Of a stretch of DNA of 64,000 nt, positions 9,079 to 54,179 are shown piece after piece. Location: assembly GCA_938017985.1 (NCBI GenBank), contig CALIKS010000001.1, positions 210,745 through 274,744 of the forward strand, read 5' to 3'. Source of the stretch: an uncultured archaeon. GTDB lineage: Archaea; Thermoproteota; Nitrososphaeria_A; Caldarchaeales; Calditenuaceae. The notes under the pieces are model-generated. The model was not told the DNA's origin. It did no database searches and saw only the letters and a list, made by a program, of their open reading frames with translations. How positions within the stretch are numbered: the first letter of the stretch is position 1; each line of letters starts with the position of its first letter. Both the position numbers and the translations under genes were made by a program.

Positions 9079-10821
9079 ATGCAGCCCACGTCTTCGATGG
9101 CATCAAAGTATCGATACTTGTTTAAGGTTCCAGGCTCAAAACATGCTATCATTCTATTAATTTTGACGAGCGTATTAATAGGATTGTTCCAGTCAGTTGC
9201 GACGCTTCATGATTTTTATTCTTCGGTTATAGTTAATGTTTTGGCGCTTAGCTTCATTCCTATCTTAGTTAATGTCTTGTTAAAAAATACTATTCTTAAG
9301 AATTTTAGAGTTAGTAGTCTGAGAAGAATTAATCATCTATCCCTTTTCGAGAATTATTTTATTTTAGCTGCGTCCCTAATAGGATTTTTGATAAGCCATA
9401 TAGAGAAAAACTCGTCCATATATTCAGTGGTGTTTTGCTCAGTCCTATCGCTAATTATTTACATTAGAGTGACTATCCTATGTACGTTTATTCCGAGCGC
9501 CTTTTTTAGGGGATTTATTGCAGGAATATTGGAGCCGCTAGCGAGAGGAATAATGCTTGCTTCAATGTTACCTAATATCTTTAATATTGAAATGATTGCC
9601 ACATCTATTAGTATAGGAATTATATTTTCTACAATTTCTCTAATAATACTTGCTAGACCGATTAAGGAAAACGTTAGTCCACTTAGACTTGCAGGTGGAT
9701 TCGTCTCGTCATTACTGGTCGGAGACGGAAACTACCTAGAAAGTATGTTAGAAAGATTAAGCTCCGAATACAGCGGTGTCTCTGATGTTTTTCTATTTAA
9801 GCGAATCGATGGAAAAAAGGTAGCAGTAATAATTCCTCCATTCCATTTTGGCCCATTCAGGACAATTGGTAGCTCTATGCTCAGCTTCTATATTGATACA
9901 GAACTTCAAAAGTATGGAATTGAAGCTGTAGTATTAAAAGGATGCACAGGCCACGAAGCAAATCTAGTCTCAAACGAAGAATCAAAAAAGATAAGCAAGG
10001 AAATTGCAGAAAAAATTCATAATAATGATGCTGATTTTACTGATGTCATCTGTTTTTATCCAGCTCGTCGTCAAGGTAGAGTGAATATTTTAGGCTTCAA
10101 CTTTAGCGGTAAGATTGTATTAATACCCACCCTTCATCCGGAGCCAATGGAAGATTTACCTCAAATAATTTCACACATAGCATCTCATTACAACGCTCTG
10201 GTCATCGATCCTCATAATTCATACCTAGAAAAGTTTTCAGGACTAAGCGAGGCAGATATAGGTTCGTTCACTGATGCAATTATCTCATCAGTTAAAAATC
10301 TTTCAAACTCGTTATGTGGAAACTTCAGTTTGGGCTTTAAGCGTATGGTGCCTAAGAATTATGGATTGTCAGATGGACTCGGAGTCGGCGGCTTTAATTT
10401 ACTTGGATTTATTATCTCCGGTAGGAAGGTAGCATTAGCAATAATTGATGGTAATAATGCACTACCAACAGTAAGGGATAAAGTAATTGAAACCTTAAGT
10501 AAGGACGGATGGGATGCAGTAGAATTGCTCACTACTGATACACATATGGTAAACGGCGTCTCTCTGGGCGGTAAGGGTTACTATGCGATAGGTGAAAAGA
10601 TTACACCTGAAGAGGTATCCGGTGTCTTTAAAGAGCTCTCAAAAGCGGTACTAAATGACCTTGAAAAAGCTGAAGTCAAATACGTTAAGGTAAGACACGA
10701 ATTCTCCAAGATATTCTCTGAAGATTTATTAGCGAGACTAGCAAAGAAATCCAGCCACTTACTCACTGCTTATCTAATCCTGCTGGCTCTATCATTAATT
10801 GTTCCTTTAACTATTCTCTAA
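9079..10821 (+). CDS. DUF2070-type archaeal multi-TM protein
   Basis: N-terminal multi-TM region followed by soluble domain with PPFHFGPFRTIGSSML, KGCTGHEANLVS, DGNNALP, TTDTHMVNGVS, and a C-terminal TM segment. Confidence 0.75.
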   Translation: MQPTSSMASKYRYLFKVPGSKHAIILLILTSVLIGLFQSVATLHDFYSSVIVNVLALSFIPILVNVLLKNTILKNFRVSSLRRINHLSLFENYFILAASLIGFLISHIEKNSSIYSVVFCSVLSLIIYIRVTILCTFIPSAFFRGFIAGILEPLARGIMLASMLPNIFNIEMIATSISIGIIFSTISLIILARPIKENVSPLRLAGGFVSSLLVGDGNYLESMLERLSSEYSGVSDVFLFKRIDGKKVAVIIPPFHFGPFRTIGSSMLSFYIDTELQKYGIEAVVLKGCTGHEANLVSNEESKKISKEIAEKIHNNDADFTDVICFYPARRQGRVNILGFNFSGKIVLIPTLHPEPMEDLPQIISHIASHYNALVIDPHNSYLEKFSGLSEADIGSFTDAIISSVKNLSNSLCGNFSLGFKRMVPKNYGLSDGLGVGGFNLLGFIISGRKVALAIIDGNNALPTVRDKVIETLSKDGWDAVELLTTDTHMVNGVSLGGKGYYAIGEKITPEEVSGVFKELSKAVLNDLEKAEVKYVKVRHEFSKIFSEDLLARLAKKSSHLLTAYLILLALSLIVPLTIL

Positions 10822-10829
10822 AGATTTAA

Positions 10830-11135
10830 TTGTTAAAACAATCTCATCATATTGGGGTAGTCTTGCTGTCAAAAGAGCCCATAATAATTGTTGGAAAAAA
10901 ACCAATAATTAAATACGTCACTGCGTGTATAACAGTTTTCAACCGCGGTGAAAGATCTTTAACTCTAAGAGCACGCGGCAAAAGAATCTCTAACTGCGTA
11001 GACGTAGTGAATCAGTTGAGAAGAAGCTTCATTACTGATTTAACAATAAAACAGATCGAAATTGGCACTGAAACATTAGGTCAAAGTGATAAATATAGAT
11101 ACATAAGTTATATAGAGATTAGAATAGCTAGGTAG
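10830..11135 (+). CDS. albA: DNA/RNA-binding protein Alba (first paralogue)
   Basis: IIIVGKKPIIKYVTACITVFNRGERSLTLRARGKRISNCVDVVNQLRRSF; start uncertain (TTG 10830 or 10863). Confidence 0.9.
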   Translation: MLKQSHHIGVVLLSKEPIIIVGKKPIIKYVTACITVFNRGERSLTLRARGKRISNCVDVVNQLRRSFITDLTIKQIEIGTETLGQSDKYRYISYIEIRIAR

Positions 11136-11144
11136 AGTGAAAAA

Positions 11145-12533
11145 ATGACTATCTCAAAGACTGACAACAGAAAAAAAATTTCAAGTTTCTTAAGGGACCC
11201 TAGAGTACTGTCAATTATTATTTTGCTTTTTGTTTTAGGGCTTAAGTTATCGGTAATAAACTATCCTTCTCCAGAGAAGTCTCCAAATGAGTGTATTTCA
11301 AACTTAGAGGGGTGTGGATTTGTTTTTGACGAAGCGCATTACGTCCCAGCGGTGAGGAAATTAATTATGGGACAAGCAACTAATAATGAGCATCCTCCAC
11401 TTAGTAAATATTTGATTATGCTCGGAATCGCTATATTTGGAGATAACCCTATTGGTTGGAGATTTTTCTCCGCGCTTTCAGGAGCAGCCAGTGTTTCACT
11501 ACTTTTTCTTATATCGTATAATTTTTTACGAAAAATCGAACTTGCCTTAGCAACGACTCTTATCTATTTAGGGGACGTAATGACTTTTAATCTTAGCTCA
11601 ATAGCTATGCTTGACGCTCCTGCATTAATGTTCTTATTATTAGGCATCTTACTAATCATGAATAAACGTAGAGTTTTAGGATATGTGATACTTGGGTTAT
11701 CAGTATTATGTAAAACATCTTCAATTTTTGGTGTGTTTACCATTACTCTGGTAGATTCATTTTTTATCACTCCTAAAGAGGGGCGTCTAAAAAAGCGATT
11801 AGAGAAAGGACTAAACTCCGCTGCCCTCTCACTTATATTGGTTATGAGCGTCTTTCTAACTGGACTCGCTATTTATGATTACGCGTATAATGTTTTTTCG
11901 AGCCCCATTGAGCATCTAGATTATATTTTGAACTACCATACTTCTTTAAGCTTTCGCTGTTCTGATTATAATGCCTTCCTCTACTGCATCCATAAGGATA
12001 GTCCATACTCAGAAGAAGGAGTCATTGTTGACTTACCCCTGAGATGGACTATACCCATCAATACGTTTGCTCCTTCTCCTTACCATGTGGTTGAAGTGAC
12101 CGTCGATGGATATTCTTATAAACCAATAGCATACTATGGCATATATTCTCCAATATGGTGGCTGACATGGATAGTCTTAGTAGTCACTGCACCCTCAGCT
12201 TTAAAAAATTTATTACACTTATTCTCAGGAAGGCATGGAGGCATCGATGAAAAAAAATTGCTGGACGTTTTCGTATTTTTCTGGATCTGTTTCAACTATC
12301 TCGTTTACTTTCCAGTGGCCTACTTACTGCATAGATGGGTATACACTTTCTATTTTATTCAGACGGTCCCCGCTATTGCACTCTCTCTTCCGAGTATCTT
12401 ATGGGAGGACCGAATAGGCAGACTAATACTAATAATGGTAATTGGAGTTCAATTATGGTGGCTCTTCATGTGGTTCCCAGTAAAATCAGAGCTCCATGTA
12501 TCTATGCTAAAGTCCTTAGGACTACCAGCATAA
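11145..12533 (+). CDS. PMT-family (GT39-like) membrane glycosyltransferase
   Basis: VFDEAHYVPAVRKLI, NEHPPLSKYLIMLG, many TM helices, HRWVYTFYFIQTVPAIAL. Confidence 0.8.
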   Translation: MTISKTDNRKKISSFLRDPRVLSIIILLFVLGLKLSVINYPSPEKSPNECISNLEGCGFVFDEAHYVPAVRKLIMGQATNNEHPPLSKYLIMLGIAIFGDNPIGWRFFSALSGAASVSLLFLISYNFLRKIELALATTLIYLGDVMTFNLSSIAMLDAPALMFLLLGILLIMNKRRVLGYVILGLSVLCKTSSIFGVFTITLVDSFFITPKEGRLKKRLEKGLNSAALSLILVMSVFLTGLAIYDYAYNVFSSPIEHLDYILNYHTSLSFRCSDYNAFLYCIHKDSPYSEEGVIVDLPLRWTIPINTFAPSPYHVVEVTVDGYSYKPIAYYGIYSPIWWLTWIVLVVTAPSALKNLLHLFSGRHGGIDEKKLLDVFVFFWICFNYLVYFPVAYLLHRWVYTFYFIQTVPAIALSLPSILWEDRIGRLILIMVIGVQLWWLFMWFPVKSELHVSMLKSLGLPA

Positions 12534-12581
12534 TCTTGCAAACCATTTATATTTTGGTGTTTAAGGAATTAATAGTTGAAG

Positions 12582-12860
12582 ATGAAAGTACCTGCAACGA
12601 TTAATACGTATTGTACAAAATGCAATGCCCATACTGAACATACAGTGACTCTTTACAAGAAGGGGAAGGAGAGAGGGTTGGCAATAGGCGCGCGTAGGCA
12701 TGAAAGAGAGCTCCATGGCTATGGTGGACAGAAATACCCTATACAGAGAAATAAAGCGAAAACGACAGATAAGAAAACGTTAGTACTTACATGTAAAAAA
12801 TGTGGGAGAAAAACAATGAGAAGCGGTGTAAGGCTTAGAAAACTCGAGATTATAAGGTGA
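12582..12860 (+). CDS. rpl44e: 50S ribosomal protein L44e
   Basis: MKVPATINTYCTKCNAHTEHTVTLYKKGKERGLAIGARRHERELHGYGGQKYP; CKKCGRKTMR. Confidence 0.96.
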   Translation: MKVPATINTYCTKCNAHTEHTVTLYKKGKERGLAIGARRHERELHGYGGQKYPIQRNKAKTTDKKTLVLTCKKCGRKTMRSGVRLRKLEIIR

Positions 12861-13072
12861 TTGAACGAATGGTAAGGATTAATGTTTCTGCACTGATTCC
12901 CCGCCCGACATCAAAGTTCTTGCTAGTCATGTGTAATTACTGTGGAAATAAACAAGTTATTCCCGATACAGCTAAGACTATCGTGACTTGTAAGGTATGT
13001 AAAGAAATAATTGCAAAGCCAACGGGTGGAAAAGCAAAAATATTCGGGAAAGTGGAGAAAGTATTAGATTAA
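12857..13072 (+). CDS. rps27e: 30S ribosomal protein S27e
   Basis: IPRPTSKFLLVMCNYCGNKQVIPDTAKTIVTCKVCKEIIAKPTGGKAKI. Confidence 0.95.
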   Translation: MIERMVRINVSALIPRPTSKFLLVMCNYCGNKQVIPDTAKTIVTCKVCKEIIAKPTGGKAKIFGKVEKVLD

Positions 13073-14044
13073 AGCTAATCTCCTAAGCTCTTTGCCAACC
13101 TTCTCTAATGGATGACTTTCTACCTGAGCCATCATTTTCTCAAGGTCTTGATAGGCGTCTGGATTTCCTGTCCACGACTTCTCAAATTCTCCACTTTTTA
13201 TTCGTTCTAAAGCCTTCTTCATGTTTTCCTTTACATGTTCATCGACGATTTTCGGCCCGACTAAGAGGCCACCGAACTTAGCAGTATCTGATACCCCCCT
13301 CAACATGTTGATTAATCCTCCGGCGTATATCAGGTCCACGATTAGTTTTAGCTCATTGCATACTTCATAGTAAGCTAACTCGGGCTGATAGCCATTCTCT
13401 ATTAAAACCTCGAATCCCTTCTTAATAAGCTCCATTACGCCGCCTACTAGTACGGCCTGTTCTCCTAAAAGGTCAGTTTCCGTCTCTTCTTCGAATGTCG
13501 TCTCTATTACACCTGCCCTAGTTGAGCCTATGGCTTTAGCTATTGCTAATGCTTTCTGCCTAGCCTTACCTGACCTGTCTTGGTAGACTGCTATTAATGA
13601 AGGGACTCCTTTGCCCTCAAGATATTTTTGTCTAAGTAACGCGCCCGGAGATTTCGGAGCTACTAATATAACGTCTACAAAATCAGGCGGGATTATTCTC
13701 TTAAAGTGTATGTTATATCCGTGAGCAAATACTAGAGTTTTACCATTATTAAGCTCTCCAACTATTTCATTATTGAAGACTGTAGGCATCGGCACGTCTG
13801 GAATCAGCATCATTATTACATCTCCTATTGAAGCTGCTTTTTTTATCGGTAGAGGCTTAAAACCATCCTTGATAGCCTCTCCCCAGCCCTTTCCACCTTC
13901 TCTTAAACCAATCACCACGTCTAAGCCAGAGTCTCTCATATTCAAGGCCTGCGCCCTGCCTTGACTTCCATACCCTATGACTGATATTTTCTTACCAATT
14001 AAGTATTCAAGCGATGCATCATTCTCATAGTAGACTTTAGCCAT
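13064..14044 (-). CDS. ilvC: Ketol-acid reductoisomerase
   Basis: KISVIGYGSQGRAQALNMRDSGLDVVIGLREG, VAPKSPGALLRQKYLEGKGVPSLIAV. Confidence 0.97.
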   Translation of the reverse strand: MAKVYYENDASLEYLIGKKISVIGYGSQGRAQALNMRDSGLDVVIGLREGGKGWGEAIKDGFKPLPIKKAASIGDVIMMLIPDVPMPTVFNNEIVGELNNGKTLVFAHGYNIHFKRIIPPDFVDVILVAPKSPGALLRQKYLEGKGVPSLIAVYQDRSGKARQKALAIAKAIGSTRAGVIETTFEEETETDLLGEQAVLVGGVMELIKKGFEVLIENGYQPELAYYEVCNELKLIVDLIYAGGLINMLRGVSDTAKFGGLLVGPKIVDEHVKENMKKALERIKSGEFEKSWTGNPDAYQDLEKMMAQVESHPLEKVGKELRRLALI

Positions 14045-47662: not shown

Positions 47663-50494
47663 TTGCTAGAAGATTTAGAAAAATTACTTGCTAAACCCGT
47701 CATAGATGCGATTAAAGAAAGATTCGGCGAACTTACAGAGGCGCAAAAGACCGCTATTCCATACATATTAAAAGGAGAAGACATACTTCTCATGACACCA
47801 ACAGGGACTGGAAAGACGGAAGCAGCTCTTTTACCTATTCTGAGCATCTTGATTATGAATCGAGACATAAAACCCATCTCTACTCTGTACATCACTCCTC
47901 TCAGAGCTTTAAATAGGGACTTGCTTGACCGCATAGATTGGTGGTGTCAAAGACTGGATATTACAGTCGCAGTAAGACACGGAGACACGTCTGAAAGAGA
48001 AAGAAGGGCACAGTCACTTAGTCCTCCTCAGATATTAATCATTACTCCTGAAGCCCTTCAATCTTTGTTGATTGGAAAAGTGTTAAGGAAATACTTAGCC
48101 AATGTTAGATGGATAATAATCGATGAGGCACATGAATTAGCAACTGATAAAAGAGGGGCTCAACTAGCAGTAGCTCTTCGTAGATTGAGAAAAATAACTA
48201 CGCAAGATTATCAAATCATAGGAATTTCTGCCACCGTTGGTAGTGCAGAAGAAGTCGGCAAGTTCTTAGTGGGCTCAACGAAGCAATGTAAAGTATTGAG
48301 TATCCCAATGCCACGCGAAACAATAATAACTCTACTCTTCCCTGTTCCTTCCGAATCTGATAAAGAGCTGGCAAACTATTTAGGAGTAGCTCCTGACGTC
48401 GCTGCCAGGCTTAGAGTAATTAAGGAACTGGTTGAAAAACACTCATCAACACTTATCTTTACTAATACTAGACCACTAGCTGAAATTTTAGCTAATAGAT
48501 TTAAGGCATGGCTAGAAACGTTTCCTGTTTCTATTCATCATGGATCATTATCACGTGATAGGAGACTACACGTTGAACGTGAATTAAAATATGGACAGCT
48601 TCACGGATTAATATGTACCTCTAGTCTAGAAATGGGCATAGACATTGGACGAATAGAACTATGCATTCAATACAATTCACCTAGAGAAGTTACAAGAATT
48701 ATACAACGAGTAGGTAGGAGTGGTCATAAGATAGGGGGAACAGCTAAAGGCGTAATTATCGTAATGGATTCTGACGATGCACTCGAAGCTATGGTTATTT
48801 CTAAACGAGCGAAGGCCGGACTCTTAGAGCCAACAGTAATACTGAAAAATAGCCTAGACGTTGTTCAGCACCAGATTGCTGGTCTACTCTTAGAATATTC
48901 TCGCTTAAGAATTGATGAAATACTCGCACTTCTTAAGGAGACATATAACTACAAAGATTTTAGCCAAGAAATGCTTCAAGAAGTCTTGGATTTTATGTCA
49001 AGTATAGGACTTGCGAAGATAGACAAGGCAGGAAACGTAATGCGTCCGAATAATCAGAAAAGACTGTTCGAATACTACTTCAATAACCTATCAATGATAC
49101 CTGAAGAAAAGCAATATCTAGTAATAAATATAGAAAACAATGAACCTGTTGGGATTCTTGATGAGAGTTTTGTAGCGGAATATGGAGAGGTTGGAGTCAA
49201 ATTCATTCTTGCAGGAAGAGCATGGATAATTGCAAGCATGTCAGGTGAGAGAATATATGTATCGCATACCAAGGAAGGGGAGGGAGCCGTACCATCTTGG
49301 GTTGGAGACGAGATACCTGTCCCTCATGAAGTAGCAATCGAGGTAGGAGAAATTAGGCGTAGATACGTCGAGATGTTAAGTCGTGGGTACAGCAGCGAAA
49401 AAGCAATTTCCCTCCTGTCATCAGAATATGAAGTGCAGCCCGATGTCATGGCGAGAAGCCTAAGGGAAGTAGATGCACATATCAAGTTAAAAATCCCTGT
49501 ACCGACCGATAGAGAAGTATTGATTGAAAAAGCAGGAGACTTTGTCGTCCTCCATTTATGTGGAGGACTCAAAATTAATAGAACGATAGGCCGCATTTTA
49601 TCAGTTTACTTGGCTGAAAAAGTAGGAGCGCCAGTTAGCTTAGTTTCTGACCCTTACAGAGTAGTTTTAAAGTCAAAACATATAGATCATGAATTAATAC
49701 TAGAAGCCTTAAAAGAACAATTCACTGAGGAACAATTAATACATTCAGTTGAGACATCGAATATTTTTAAGAGACGACTCATCCACATAGCTCGTAAAAT
49801 GGGCATAGTAGAAAAAGAAGCCAGCCTATTAGACATAGGTACTCAACAACTAGTCTTAAGCCTCAGAGACAAAGCTCCATATAAGGAAGCACTTAACTTT
49901 ACATTGGTATCGGACTATGACTGGGAAGGAGCTAAGAGAATATTAGAAATGATAAGAGATGGGCACATTAGTGTCTCAACATACGTATCAACTACTCCGA
50001 GCCCATTAGCAACTTTGACAATAAATCGTTATCTTTATGAATTTGAAATATTTACACCCGAGAGGCTACATAAAGTCATTATTAATGCAGTTAAAGGAAG
50101 GTTATTCGCTGAAAGGGTCACGCTAGTCTGCACGTCATGTTACTTATACACCCAAGATGTCGAGGTAGGAGAAATTGAAGAACGGCCAGAATGTAAAAAC
50201 TGTGGTTCACGTAGACTTGGAGTCTTTAAACACGACATGCATTATTCGGATTTATTAATCAATAAAAGGGGAAAATCACTTTCCTTAGAAGAAAAAAGAC
50301 TGGCTAGAGAGATAGAAAAAACTGCAAGTCTAGTAGAGAAGTATGGAAAGTCAGCAATCGTCGCATTTGCTGGAAGAAACTTAACGCTAAAAATGGTTGA
50401 AGAAATACTATCAAAAGAATCTAATGTTAGTCCAAAATTAATAGAATTAATAATTGAGGCTGAAAAGAAAAGATTGCTAGAGCTTTTCAAATAA
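47663..50494 (+). CDS. lhr: Lhr-type DEAD/DEAH superfamily 2 helicase
   Basis: LLMTPTGTGKTEAALLP, DEAHEL, GISATVG, TSSLEMGIDIG, QRVGRSGH; long C-terminal Lhr extension; zinc-knuckle CTSC..CKNC. Confidence 0.95.
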   Translation: MLEDLEKLLAKPVIDAIKERFGELTEAQKTAIPYILKGEDILLMTPTGTGKTEAALLPILSILIMNRDIKPISTLYITPLRALNRDLLDRIDWWCQRLDITVAVRHGDTSERERRAQSLSPPQILIITPEALQSLLIGKVLRKYLANVRWIIIDEAHELATDKRGAQLAVALRRLRKITTQDYQIIGISATVGSAEEVGKFLVGSTKQCKVLSIPMPRETIITLLFPVPSESDKELANYLGVAPDVAARLRVIKELVEKHSSTLIFTNTRPLAEILANRFKAWLETFPVSIHHGSLSRDRRLHVERELKYGQLHGLICTSSLEMGIDIGRIELCIQYNSPREVTRIIQRVGRSGHKIGGTAKGVIIVMDSDDALEAMVISKRAKAGLLEPTVILKNSLDVVQHQIAGLLLEYSRLRIDEILALLKETYNYKDFSQEMLQEVLDFMSSIGLAKIDKAGNVMRPNNQKRLFEYYFNNLSMIPEEKQYLVINIENNEPVGILDESFVAEYGEVGVKFILAGRAWIIASMSGERIYVSHTKEGEGAVPSWVGDEIPVPHEVAIEVGEIRRRYVEMLSRGYSSEKAISLLSSEYEVQPDVMARSLREVDAHIKLKIPVPTDREVLIEKAGDFVVLHLCGGLKINRTIGRILSVYLAEKVGAPVSLVSDPYRVVLKSKHIDHELILEALKEQFTEEQLIHSVETSNIFKRRLIHIARKMGIVEKEASLLDIGTQQLVLSLRDKAPYKEALNFTLVSDYDWEGAKRILEMIRDGHISVSTYVSTTPSPLATLTINRYLYEFEIFTPERLHKVIINAVKGRLFAERVTLVCTSCYLYTQDVEVGEIEERPECKNCGSRRLGVFKHDMHYSDLLINKRGKSLSLEEKRLAREIEKTASLVEKYGKSAIVAFAGRNLTLKMVEEILSKESNVSPKLIELIIEAEKKRLLELFK

Positions 50495-50510: not shown

Positions 50511-51116
50511 TCAAGGAGACTCTTTATTAAGAGTACTGTTTAGACTTTTTTCTTGCTCAGTAATATTTAAGAATGCTTTTAGCAGTTCTTGTTTATCAAC
50601 CTCAACTTTTGTTCTCCAGCCAATTGATACTGTACCATCATCATTCTTTATTAGATAACCCCTTCTTGACAATCTCTCTAAAATTGCTTCGACACGCCAT
50701 TTTTGGTACTTTGTTTCTAGCATTTCAACTATTTCTTTATAATTGGCTTTTTCATTCTTGGTAAAGAGATATGCAAGGGTTGCAGATAAGACGGCTAGTT
50801 CGTCAAGACTATATCCGAGAGTTGGGATGTCAGAGATGTTTAAAGGCTCAGATAACACAACGTAAAACCTAGCCCTATCTAAATCATTCTCTTCTGATTT
50901 TTGGTCATATACAATCCTTACTTGCAACCCAATATCTTTAAGCCTTGAATTTAGGCTCTCAATAATTTTGGGATAATTCTTTCCTAATCGTCTTTTAAGT
51001 TCCCATCCCCTTACTCCTGGAAGCCGATGCCCAGAAGCGACCATTAATGATAGGGCAGTAGATAACTTCTTTTCTAGTCTTTTTAACTCCTCATCAGTCT
51101 TACTCATTCCGACCAC
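50511..51116 (-). CDS. KITE-type tandem winged-helix protein (ScpB/Nse3-MAGE-like)
   Basis: YPKIIESLNSRLKDIGLQVRIVYDQ...ARFYVVLSEPL followed by DELAVLSATLAYLFTKNEKANYKEIVEML...LSRRGYLIKNDDGTVSIGWRTKVEVD; operon with SMC-like gene. Confidence 0.6.
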   Translation of the reverse strand: MVGMSKTDEELKRLEKKLSTALSLMVASGHRLPGVRGWELKRRLGKNYPKIIESLNSRLKDIGLQVRIVYDQKSEENDLDRARFYVVLSEPLNISDIPTLGYSLDELAVLSATLAYLFTKNEKANYKEIVEMLETKYQKWRVEAILERLSRRGYLIKNDDGTVSIGWRTKVEVDKQELLKAFLNITEQEKSLNSTLNKESP

Positions 51117-51849
51117 CTAGATTAATAACTAATGAAAATTTCCTTTCCTCCATCTTTTCCGGCTTTGATATTCTTATGAATATTTTACCATCAAGAGGTC
51201 TTACTTTCACCTCAACTTCTCCACTGCTGATTAGAAAGCTAAGAAGATAAGCCCTCTCAAACTTAGCATCTATACTTTCACTATCAATAAACTCCCAATA
51301 ATTAATCCAGTTTGGATATTTTTCAGCTAATTCCTTACGGATAATATTCAATTTATTTTCAATTACTGGTTCTTCCTCAAAAATGTATAGAGGCTCGCTT
51401 TGTAATTCAATACTTTGTAAATAATTATCATTAATTCTATTTTTTGTTGGAAGAGAAATAAAATGTTCATATCCTCTTAAAAGTAGGGGAATTGTTATCT
51501 GCTCTATCCTAACAATGGGCCTCCAAGCTAATAGAAGTGCTTGAACTAGATCCACAGTAGACGAAGATATGACTTTAGAAAAAATTATACTGCTATCAAT
51601 GAATAATGATCCCGCCCTCTCCCTTACCCACTTCTGCTGCACGCCTAGTACAATAGAAATTCTATAGAGAGTTTCTGCGTCTAGTATTACTGTTTCTGTA
51701 TCCTTGTATTTCTCAATAATCTCCCGTAACCTGTCTAATAAGCTCATGATGTTTATGCTAAATGGTTCTATACGCTGATCTGCTATATTGTCAAGAACAT
51801 TAATGAATCTTAAAAGTTCTTGCTTTGCTAAAACTATCTCGCTAACCAC
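51100..51849 (-). CDS. Kleisin-like (ScpA/Nse4-like) protein
   Basis: Sits between the SMC-like and KITE-like genes; C-terminal FERAYLLSFLISSGEVEVKVRPLDGKIFIRI resembles kleisin winged helix. Confidence 0.55.
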   Translation of the reverse strand: MVSEIVLAKQELLRFINVLDNIADQRIEPFSINIMSLLDRLREIIEKYKDTETVILDAETLYRISIVLGVQQKWVRERAGSLFIDSSIIFSKVISSSTVDLVQALLLAWRPIVRIEQITIPLLLRGYEHFISLPTKNRINDNYLQSIELQSEPLYIFEEEPVIENKLNIIRKELAEKYPNWINYWEFIDSESIDAKFERAYLLSFLISSGEVEVKVRPLDGKIFIRISKPEKMEERKFSLVINLGGRNE

Positions 51850-53589
51850 TTAGTCTTCCCCTTCTTGAATCACAAAGGATCTTCCTGAAACGTTTTGAAC
51901 GAGTATTATATTCATTTCCTCGGTGACTTGAATCTTGCTGGGCGTAATAAGTAAATATTGAGTATTTGGATATTTTTTAGCAGTTGAGAGAAGAATCTTC
52001 ATCATCAGTTCTTTATTAAGTGGATCCAAATGGACATCAAACTCGTCTACAGCTCTAATAGTTGATTTCATGTAGCTTTGTAAAGCTAATAAAAATGCAA
52101 GAGTAGCAACTACTCTTTCGCCCCCACTATGCATATGAGAGTCTAAAATAGTCGGATCGCTGCCTCTAAAACCAACATGTAGCTCAATGCTTGCTGTTGA
52201 GAGATCATCCAAATCCTTTAGTAATATATTGCCTCTCGCACCTATTGTAGATAGAATTTCCTGAAAAGTTGGCTCAACTTTTGAGATTATTTCTCTTAAT
52301 TTATTTCTCCAAACATCCTTTCTTTTATTTACTTCATCCAAAGCACGTTTTACATTTTCGTATATTTCCTCAGCCTTCCTCTTAATTTCAGTATACTTTG
52401 AGTCCGCTATTAAAAACATGTTTTCAGCCTCGTGCGATACAGTCCCGACTGAGGCGATCTGTAAAGTCGTAAGCCTAATTTCCTCAAGTACTTCATGTGG
52501 GTCTCTGTTTGAAATAATTCGTTCACCTTTTTCGAGCGCCTGCTTAGTATTCTGTTCCAATTCGCTGTTTAGCTTGTTAATCTCTCTAGCTAGCTCTTCC
52601 AGCTCTTTTTCTATCTGTTTTTTCCTAAACTCGGCTGCACCTTTTAGAGCAGCTGACTCAATAAGCTCATCTACATATTTTAAAATCTCGATTATCGGCA
52701 AGTTATTCTCTATACTACTTTTTACAGATTCCCTTATCATTGATATTTCTTGAAATTTGTTAACAATCTCAATTTCTAATTGTTCATCTTCTTTTTGTAA
52801 TTTTTCTTTCATTTTTATTTTTCTTTCAATTTCGTCCTCAATTCTTTTTACTAAACACCAAGCGTATTCTTTTTCTAGTTCTCTTCTCCTTGATTCGAGA
52901 AATCTTATTTTTGATAGTTTCTCTAATTCCGATCTCCAATATTCTACTGAGGCTTCTGCCTCAGCGAGTATCTTTTTTATGTTATTACTTTCAGACATAA
53001 GTGCTCTTAGCCTTGCCTCTGCTTCTACAATTCGCTCTCGTAGCAGTGAAATACCAATAGCATCCTCGACCATTTGGAGCTTTTCAACGTTATTTCTTGC
53101 GGCAAAATTTTCTATCATGTTTTGATGCATTATTATGAGCATGTTATTGGGGTTTATTCCAATACTCTTTAATAGTTGATCAACCTCAGCTTTCGTCCTG
53201 AATCTATTATTGACGTAATGCCAGTATTCACCTGTCTTTTTTATATATCTAGTTATTGCTATCGTATCTGAATTTATACTTCTTATTGGTCTTTTGTCAC
53301 CTACTAGAGAATTATCAAACATGACAGTTACTCTTGCCACTTCTTTACCTCGCTGAATTAAGTCACTCAATTTTTCTGCTCTTTCCGTATATGTCTGTCC
53401 CAATGCTACGGCTATTCCGAGGAGTATTGATGATTTTCCTGAACCATTAGGCCCAGTTATGATGTTTACTCCTTTATTGAGCTTTATTCTGGAGTATTCG
53501 TGGGACATGAAGTTTTCTAAAATGACTTCACGTACATACGTCCCAGTAGTCGTTAGGGTTTCGGCCTGAACAGCGCGGGTTCTATCCAT
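51850..53589 (-). CDS. Short SMC5/6-like ATPase (579 aa)
   Basis: LENFMSHEYSRIKLNKGVNIITGPNGSGKSSILLGIAVALGQ; signature HSGGERVVATLAFLLALQ; Walker B IRAVDEFDVHLDPLNKE; TQYLLITPSKI. Confidence 0.85.
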   Translation of the reverse strand: MDRTRAVQAETLTTTGTYVREVILENFMSHEYSRIKLNKGVNIITGPNGSGKSSILLGIAVALGQTYTERAEKLSDLIQRGKEVARVTVMFDNSLVGDKRPIRSINSDTIAITRYIKKTGEYWHYVNNRFRTKAEVDQLLKSIGINPNNMLIIMHQNMIENFAARNNVEKLQMVEDAIGISLLRERIVEAEARLRALMSESNNIKKILAEAEASVEYWRSELEKLSKIRFLESRRRELEKEYAWCLVKRIEDEIERKIKMKEKLQKEDEQLEIEIVNKFQEISMIRESVKSSIENNLPIIEILKYVDELIESAALKGAAEFRKKQIEKELEELAREINKLNSELEQNTKQALEKGERIISNRDPHEVLEEIRLTTLQIASVGTVSHEAENMFLIADSKYTEIKRKAEEIYENVKRALDEVNKRKDVWRNKLREIISKVEPTFQEILSTIGARGNILLKDLDDLSTASIELHVGFRGSDPTILDSHMHSGGERVVATLAFLLALQSYMKSTIRAVDEFDVHLDPLNKELMMKILLSTAKKYPNTQYLLITPSKIQVTEEMNIILVQNVSGRSFVIQEGED

Positions 53590-53729: not shown

Positions 53730-54179
53730 ATGGAAATAGACATTAAAACTACACTCGAGAGATTCAGGAGATTCATTATTTATAATACTTGCCTTTCCTT
53801 CATCCCTAAGGGCTACCTAAAAGACCCGTCAATATTTCCGGAGAGAAGCACAGATAAGGGAGAAATTTACGTCGAAGCAGCTAGCAAAGTCGAATTGGCC
53901 AAGATTCGCGACCTCACATTTGTGAAGGCTGCTGACATATTGGGAATAATATATCGATCCAAAACTGGTAACACATATCTAAAATGGCGACAAATTAAGG
54001 GAAGCATTGGTAGATTAACTGGCGTAGCTTCGCCTAACTCAATAGTAAATCTAATCGAGGCGAAAGTGATTACTAGAGAATATGTTGAAGAAGCATTAAA
54101 GGGAATGTCTGGACACTCATCCATGTCTAGAGCATCAAGCTCTATGAGTGCTGATACCACTAGAGAGTCTTCTCAGTAG
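53730..54179 (+). CDS. Hypothetical 149-aa protein with Ser-rich tail
   Basis: ATG-initiated; divergent from SMC-like operon; TATA-like TATAAATATATA upstream. Confidence 0.55.
   Translation: MEIDIKTTLERFRRFIIYNTCLSFIPKGYLKDPSIFPERSTDKGEIYVEAASKVELAKIRDLTFVKAADILGIIYRSKTGNTYLKWRQIKGSIGRLTGVASPNSIVNLIEAKVITREYVEEALKGMSGHSSMSRASSSMSADTTRESSQ

What the first reader, a model, noticed from the sequence alone, without database searches (positions are those of the whole stretch)
50511..53589. Compact SMC5/6-like operon: short SMC ATPase, kleisin-like and KITE/MAGE-like genes
Three tightly packed minus-strand genes encode a 579-aa SMC-like ATPase with intact Walker A (GPNGSGKSS), signature (HSGGERVVATLAFLLALQ) and Walker B (RAVDEFDVHLDP), then a kleisin-like protein, then a tandem winged-helix protein. 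The N-terminal ENFMSHEYSRIKLNKGVNIITGPNGSGKSSILLGIAVALG and the C-terminal VDEFDVHLDPLNKE...TQYLLITPSKI look closer to eukaryotic SMC5/SMC6 heads than to SMC1-4 or bacterial SMC, which usually carry an FKSF motif and FxxFxxG. At 579 aa the protein is about half the length of a normal SMC, so its arms and hinge must be very short or absent. No zinc-hook CxxC is present. This could be a minimal archaeal loop-extruder or an ancestor-like SMC5/6 complex.
Basis: partly seen in the sequence, partly recalled or inferred. Interest (0 to 1): 0.82.

Follow-up and report, generated by a model that had tools for sequence, protein, structure and literature searches.

The report
Hinge-less archaeal SMC5/6-like operon
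An archaeal three-gene operon encodes a small relative of the eukaryotic SMC5/6 genome-maintenance machine (motor, kleisin and KITE subunits), but its motor has very short arms and no hinge, which bears on where SMC5/6 came from and on how little of an SMC ring is needed.

Summary
Three tightly packed minus-strand genes (53589 to 50511) encode a 579-aa SMC ATPase, a 249-aa kleisin and a 201-aa tandem winged-helix (KITE) protein. The operon is contiguous in 28 of 31 assessable loci in several archaeal lineages. The ATPase profile scores eukaryotic SMC5/SMC6 above every other SMC; the canonical archaeal SMC shows the reverse preference. The kleisin is Nse4-like: the four top PDB hits are Nse4/EID3, and Pfam Nse4_C reaches 3.5e-7. 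The five best fold matches of the KITE are all Nse1/Nse3 structures. In a head tree the family is sister to SMC5+SMC6 (UFBoot 97), and grouping SMC5/6 with canonical SMC is rejected (AU p=0.035). The ATPase has no hinge: its model is a hairpin with a 4-residue, poorly conserved tip, and all 48 relatives compared are 555-699 aa. Deeper-branching Asgard-phylum relatives (831-1145 aa) keep hinges, so the form looks reduced rather than ancestral. In one family of the phylum the 17 operon-bearing genomes sampled show no canonical SMC. 'SMC5/6-related' archaeal SMCs were published in 2021. The hinge-less architecture with a dedicated kleisin and KITE I did not find described, but a directly relevant 2024 preprint could not be read.

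The parts
51850..53589 (-). short, hinge-less SMC5/6-like ATPase (579 aa): N-head about 18-180, arm helix 181-294, 4-residue turn 295-298, arm helices 299-354, 364-381 and 388-447, C-head 450-570
51100..51849 (-). Nse4-like kleisin (249 aa); the C-terminal domain (YWxF[IV]...RAYxLSFLxSxG) matches Pfam Nse4_C and the PDB chains of Nse4/EID3
50511..51116 (-). KITE (tandem winged-helix) protein, Nse1/Nse3(MAGE)-like (201 aa); likely homodimeric because it is the only copy found in the genome
47663..50494 (+). Lhr-type superfamily 2 helicase (943 aa), convergent, 16 bp from the KITE gene; a recurrent neighbour (14 of 27 loci with room downstream), possible functional partner, not an operon member
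53730..54179 (+). 149-aa protein of unknown function, divergently transcribed from the SMC gene; neighbour conserved within part of the order; not shown to belong

Best explanation
The operon encodes an archaeal SMC-kleisin-KITE complex that is the sister group of eukaryotic SMC5/6 and has secondarily lost the hinge and most of the arms. Proposed working: two SMC subunits engage head to head on ATP; the Nse4-like kleisin bridges the neck of one and the cap of the other; a dimer of the single KITE rides on the kleisin and presses DNA onto the engaged heads. This gives an ATP-gated DNA clamp with two stub arms of about 15 nm and no hinge-closed ring. Its likely job is genome maintenance, such as handling replication or recombination intermediates, as SMC5/6 does and as the recurrent Lhr helicase neighbour hints. 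Where no canonical SMC is found it may also be the main chromosome organiser. Shown by computation: homology, fold, absence of a hinge, operon conservation, phylogenetic position. Inferred: subunit stoichiometry, the clamp mechanism, the role in repair.
For: Heads: the family profile scores SMC5 225, SMC6 214, human SMC5 179, archaeal canonical SMC 162, SMC2 136, SMC1 117, SMC3 116, SMC4 107, Rad50 51 bits. A canonical archaeal SMC query finds SMC3, SMC2 and SMC4 at 1e-87 to 1e-83 and no SMC5/6 at E<=1e-20. The ITP motif after Walker B is shared with SMC5/6 (47 of 48 members); the canonical SMCs printed from the alignment lack it. Tree: sister to SMC5+SMC6, SH-aLRT/UFBoot 93/97; canonical SMC + SMC3 separate, 93/99; SMC5/6 with canonical rejected by AU, p=0.035. 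Kleisin: Nse4_C in 10 of 17, best 3.5e-7; PDB top four Nse4/EID3, 1e-4. KITE: Pfam MAGE and SMC_Nse1 are the two most frequent families; five best folds are Nse1/Nse3, then JetC and MukE (model pLDDT 89.5). No hinge: model pLDDT 87.5 with a helix-turn-helix tip; tip residues 286-300 are among the least conserved of the protein; hinge hits in 200 genomes fall on other, mostly long canonical SMC frames, none on these loci. Operon. Absence of canonical SMC. Lhr neighbour.
Against: No complex was modelled and nothing was measured. The exact branching among eukaryotic SMC5/6, this family and the Asgard forms is not resolved (Asgard alternatives p=0.08-0.10) and long branches are present; the alternative placing this family with canonical SMC is only borderline (AU p=0.06). 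The eukaryotic sample in the tree is small (yeast SMC5, human SMC6, N-head of human SMC3). The kleisin was not folded, and its N-terminal (neck-binding) domain has only a weak ScpA hit. A tip-to-tip dimer cannot be excluded. Lhr linkage is partial, and shared neighbourhood is weak evidence of function.
Confidence: 0.75

Rival explanations
1. It is a ring after all: the short arms dimerise through their helical tips (as RecN-like or hook-type proteins do), so a small closed SMC-kleisin ring forms and works by topological entrapment or loop extrusion.
For: SMC-kleisin complexes studied so far dimerise at the far end of the arm (established knowledge). The longer members (626-699 aa) put their extra length around the tip.
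Against: The tip is among the most variable parts of the protein and is a 4-residue turn in the model. No CxxC hook in 48 members, no hinge family match at these loci.
Confidence: 0.3
2. It is an anti-plasmid or anti-phage defence complex of the Wadjet/MksBEF or Lamassu kind, using a short SMC with kleisin and KITE.
For: The SMC matches PADLOC mad3 (5.8e-28) and LmuB (1.2e-18). The KITE fold also resembles JetC and MukE. Wadjet uses the same subunit kinds.
Against: No nuclease gene in the operon, and none recognised consistently beside it. Same genes in nearly all sampled members of the window's order. Neighbours that were identified are housekeeping genes. SMC5 is a better match.
Confidence: 0.1
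3. It is the archaeal ClsN/ASRP or RecN type: a Rad50-like short SMC-related ATPase unrelated to SMC5/6, whose neighbours are unrelated winged-helix regulators.
For: Similar length (ASRP model 593 positions; match 2e-13) and coiled-coil architecture.
Against: ASRP score 49.8 against a cut-off of 300; no zinc hook; SMC5/6 heads far above Rad50; neighbours match Nse4 and Nse1/Nse3.
Confidence: 0.03
4. The short hinge-less form is ancestral and hinges were acquired later in SMC5/6.
For: Simplest architecture; wide distribution among archaea.
Against: Hinges occur in canonical SMC and in the deeper-branching Asgard-phylum relatives L092, L094 and L066/L099, and in eukaryotic SMC5/6 (established knowledge), so a single loss is simpler than repeated gains.
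Confidence: 0.07

Closest known systems
Eukaryotic SMC5/6 complex (Smc5, Smc6, Nse4 kleisin, Nse1 and Nse3 KITEs)
   Same: Closest head sequences, ITP motif, Nse4-type kleisin, Nse1/Nse3-type KITE fold
   Different: One SMC gene of this type and one KITE gene found instead of two each; no hinge; arms of about 110 residues; no Nse2/Nse5/Nse6 identified in the operon; KITE of 201 aa with no RING match in Pfam
'SMC5/6-related' archaeal SMC (Yoshinaga & Inagaki 2021, described in PMC9389158)
   Same: Archaeal SMC grouping with SMC5/6 (MLBP 100 in PMC9389158); very probably the same family
   Different: The passages of PMC9389158 that I read treat only the ATPase, not operon partners or hinge loss; the 2021 paper itself is not held
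Smc-ScpAB / archaeal Smc-ScpA
   Same: SMC-kleisin(-KITE) principle; weak kleisin matches to ScpA
   Different: Canonical heads (FKSF motif, no ITP) and a hinge; archaeal Smc-ScpA generally lacks a KITE (Jeon et al. 2020, PMC7055376)
MukBEF / MksBEF / Wadjet (JetABCD)
   Same: KITE fold (JetC, MukE)
   Different: No nuclease subunit; heads closer to SMC5/6 and canonical SMC
ASRP family (ClsN/coalescin, Sph)
   Same: Archaeal, about 600 aa, coiled coil
   Different: Most ASRPs have a zinc hook (PMC9389158); here none, and the score is far below the ASRP cut-off

Membership tests
SMC5/6 complex | SMC head groups with SMC5/SMC6 rather than SMC1-4 or canonical SMC | tested here: met
   profile ranking, reciprocal canonical query, tree UFBoot 97, AU p=0.035 against the alternative
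SMC5/6 complex | delta-kleisin of the Nse4/EID family | tested here: met
   Nse4_C 3.5e-7 in the best member, 0.034 in the window member; PDB top four Nse4/EID3
SMC5/6 complex | KITE subunits of the Nse1/Nse3 (MAGE) kind | tested here: met
   Foldseek top five all Nse1/Nse3; Pfam MAGE 19/48 and SMC_Nse1 15/48, below cut-off in the window member
SMC5/6 complex | two different KITEs and two different SMCs (heterodimers) | tested here: not met
   one KITE in the genome; the only other SMC hit at E<=0.001 in the genome is the canonical-type SMC on C20. The assembly is 83% complete
SMC5/6 complex | SMC hinge dimerisation domain | tested here: not met
   no PF06470 at these loci; model shows a 4-residue turn
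SMC5/6 complex | Nse2 SUMO ligase and Nse5/6 loader | not tested
   not searched for in the genome; none in the operon
SMC5/6 complex | DNA clamping, loop extrusion or repair phenotype | not testable with these tools
   needs biochemistry
SMC superfamily (SMC proper) | bipartite ABC head with intact Walker A, signature and Walker B at the two ends of a coiled coil | tested here: met
   SMC_N 1e-33; invariant catalytic residues; model
Rad50 / ASRP (zinc-hook proteins) | CxxC hook at the arm tip | tested here: not met
   0 of 48 have CxxC
Wadjet / Lamassu defence | linked effector nuclease | tested here: not met
   no such gene in the operon; the neighbours that were identified vary or are housekeeping genes
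canonical archaeal Smc-ScpA(B) | FKSF-type head, ScpA kleisin (PF02616), hinge | tested here: not met
   ENFMS instead of FKSF, Nse4_C rather than ScpA match, no hinge

The most novel reading that the evidence does not exclude
A hinge-less SMC-kleisin-KITE machine: the archaeal sister complex of SMC5/6 works as an ATP-gated DNA clamp without any hinge-closed ring, and in some archaea it is the only SMC complex, so it must do chromosome organisation as well as repair.
Probability: 0.45. Interest if true: 0.82.

Novelty: new variant of a known kind. Interest (0 to 1): 0.66.

Why it matters
SMC5/6 is the least understood eukaryotic SMC complex and its origin is debated. A set of archaeal operons encoding only a head-and-stub ATPase, an Nse4-like kleisin and one Nse1/3-like KITE would place the core of SMC5/6 in archaea as a unit, with the duplications (Smc5/Smc6, Nse1/Nse3) later. 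The hinge-less arms make it directly testable whether SMC action needs a closed ring or long arms. Most known archaeal SMC complexes lack a KITE (PMC7055376), so this also changes the picture of archaeal chromosome biology, especially in the family where no canonical SMC was found.

Tried and rejected
Rad50/ASRP/RecN origin of the head: rejected by profile scores and absence of a hook. Defence-system reading: weak PADLOC matches only, no nuclease. The profile of the third gene against PDB sequences gave first nothing useful and later only a weak MAGE hit (7dg2_C, E=0.028); the fold comparison was needed. The Asgard-phylum operon L097 turned out to be a canonical SMC with hinge plus ScpB and was not used as an SMC5/6-like example. 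L095 (1057 aa, Asgard phylum, kleisin hit 4e-11) was too divergent and was left out of the tree. The full text of Yoshinaga & Inagaki 2021 and of van Hooff et al. 2024 (bioRxiv 2024.01.07.573240) is not held; the papers citing the latter that I looked at do not state its findings on archaeal subunits. Bacterial-type promoter patterns around the operon were not above expectation.

Full report
What is there. The three minus-strand genes exist exactly as described. The kleisin gene starts with GTG directly after the SMC stop codon, and the KITE start overlaps the kleisin stop, so the three are likely one transcript with coupled translation (sequence; inference). The motor has complete ABC motifs, with the key residues of Walker A, the Q-loop Gln, the signature and the Walker B Glu invariant or nearly so over 48 homologues.

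Which SMC. Against the PDB, the single protein matches yeast Smc5 best (1e-31). A family profile gives SMC5 225 and SMC6 214 bits, then archaeal canonical SMC 162, SMC2 136, SMC1 117, SMC3 116, SMC4 107 and Rad50 51. A canonical SMC from an Asgard-phylum genome shows the opposite preference: SMC3, SMC2 and SMC4 at 1e-87 to 1e-83, and no SMC5/6 down to 1e-20. The diagnostic motifs agree: ENFMS instead of FKSF, and ITP after Walker B as in SMC5 (LITP) and SMC6 (LLTP) where canonical SMC has ITL or ISL. In a tree of concatenated head domains the family (99/100) is sister to SMC5+SMC6 (93/97), next come Asgard-phylum homologues, and canonical SMCs plus SMC3 form the other side (93/99). Forcing SMC5/6 to join canonical SMC is rejected (AU p=0.035); forcing this family to join canonical SMC is borderline (0.06); forcing SMC5/6 to join the Asgard forms is not rejected (0.08-0.10). 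So 'SMC5/6 side' is supported, but the precise sister group is open, and the eukaryotic sample is small.

The partners. The kleisin shares the Nse4 C-terminal signature (YWxF...ETVxRAYxLSFLVxxG against human EID3 [28 protein letters not shown]): Pfam Nse4_C in 10 of 17 members, best 3.5e-7 (the window's own member only 0.034); the four top PDB hits are Nse4 and EID3, followed further down by weak ScpA matches. The third protein is predicted with high confidence (pLDDT 89.5) as a tandem winged helix; its five best PDB folds are chains of Nse1/Nse3 or Smc5/6 structures, then JetC and MukE. Pfam's two most frequent families among 48 members are MAGE and SMC_Nse1. Only one KITE gene was found in the genome, so a homodimer is the simplest reading.

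Architecture. The SMC model (pLDDT 87.5) has a head, one unbroken helix of 114 residues, a 4-residue turn and three returning helices. There is no globular hinge; residues 286-300 are among the least conserved of the whole protein. Family lengths are 555-699 aa, the extra length of the longer ones lying around the tip. A search of 200 genomes of the phylum for the SMC hinge found it on other, mostly long SMC frames and never at these loci. In contrast, homologous operons in the phylum of Lokiarchaeota CR_4 carry an SMC with a hinge, of 831 or 1145 aa. Hinged forms thus surround the hinge-less clade in the tree (eukaryotic hinges from established knowledge), so loss is the simpler account and 'ancestor-like' is not supported for this protein, although the subunit set itself may be ancestral.

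Distribution. The three genes are contiguous in 15 of 18 relatives examined (three have the SMC separated) and in 13 of 13 complete loci with named records: Thermofilales, Bathyarchaeota, a thaumarchaeote (UBA160), Methanodesulfokora, Hadesarchaea, 'Hodarchaeaceae' and others. The kleisin is found in 92 of 200 genomes of the window's phylum. In one family (f8) the 17 operon-bearing genomes sampled have no hinge hit, and a canonical SMC query in eight of them returns only the roughly 590-aa gene and at most weak Rad50-like hits. The window's own genome also has a canonical-type SMC (1159-aa open frame) but no detectable ScpA (the assembly is 83% complete).

Surroundings and likely role. An Lhr-type helicase lies convergently next to the KITE gene, here 16 bp away, and within 450 bp in 14 of 27 loci with at least 3 kb of room, across several lineages. 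Lhr helicases are linked to DNA repair (established knowledge), so a role at damaged or branched DNA is plausible, but this is inference from linkage. No nuclease was recognised with the operon, which speaks against a Wadjet- or Lamassu-type defence system.

What is known. PMC9389158 states that archaea have an 'SMC5/6-related' SMC clade with SMC5/6 (support 100), citing Yoshinaga & Inagaki 2021. The ATPase is therefore not new. Jeon et al. 2020 conclude that archaeal Smc complexes mostly lack KITEs. In the searches made I found no paper describing the archaeal Nse4/KITE partners or the hinge-less build, but a preprint on exactly this theme (van Hooff et al. 2024) could not be read, so priority is uncertain. 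Hence: new variant of a known kind.

Noticed in passing
L092:8578-9963 (-), L093:4419-5807 (+), L094:3877-4977 (+): In Asgard-phylum relatives the SMC-kleisin-KITE operon is directly preceded by another gene; in L092 and L094 it encodes an AAA+ ATPase, and a gene of the same length sits there in L093. A possible extra subunit or regulator, not seen beside the TACK operons examined.
   Followed up: partly
window genome G000:C20 (L100:1736-5194, -): The same genome carries a canonical-type SMC (1159-aa open frame) with a weak, divergent hinge match, but no ScpA kleisin is detectable in the assembly; the assembly is 83% complete.
   Followed up: partly
genomes G047, G056, G063, G070, G077, G091, G118, G123 (family f8): These archaea appear to have no canonical SMC; the short SMC5/6-like gene is the only SMC found.
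   Followed up: yes
window 53730-54179 (+): A 149-aa protein with no Pfam match is divergently transcribed from the SMC gene and keeps this position in several genomes of the order.
   Followed up: no
window 47663-50494 (+): The Lhr-type helicase is a recurrent convergent neighbour of the KITE gene in several archaeal lineages; its PADLOC matches (BrxHI 1e-98) probably reflect the helicase family rather than defence context.
   Followed up: partly
L034, L043, L044: In three relatives the SMC gene is separated from the kleisin-KITE pair, so the operon can split while the parts are kept.
   Followed up: partly
L095:8398-9336 and 10393-13563 (-): A very divergent Asgard-phylum locus with a 1057-aa SMC-like ATPase near a 313-aa protein matching the kleisin profile (4e-11); its position in the family is unknown.
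   Followed up: no
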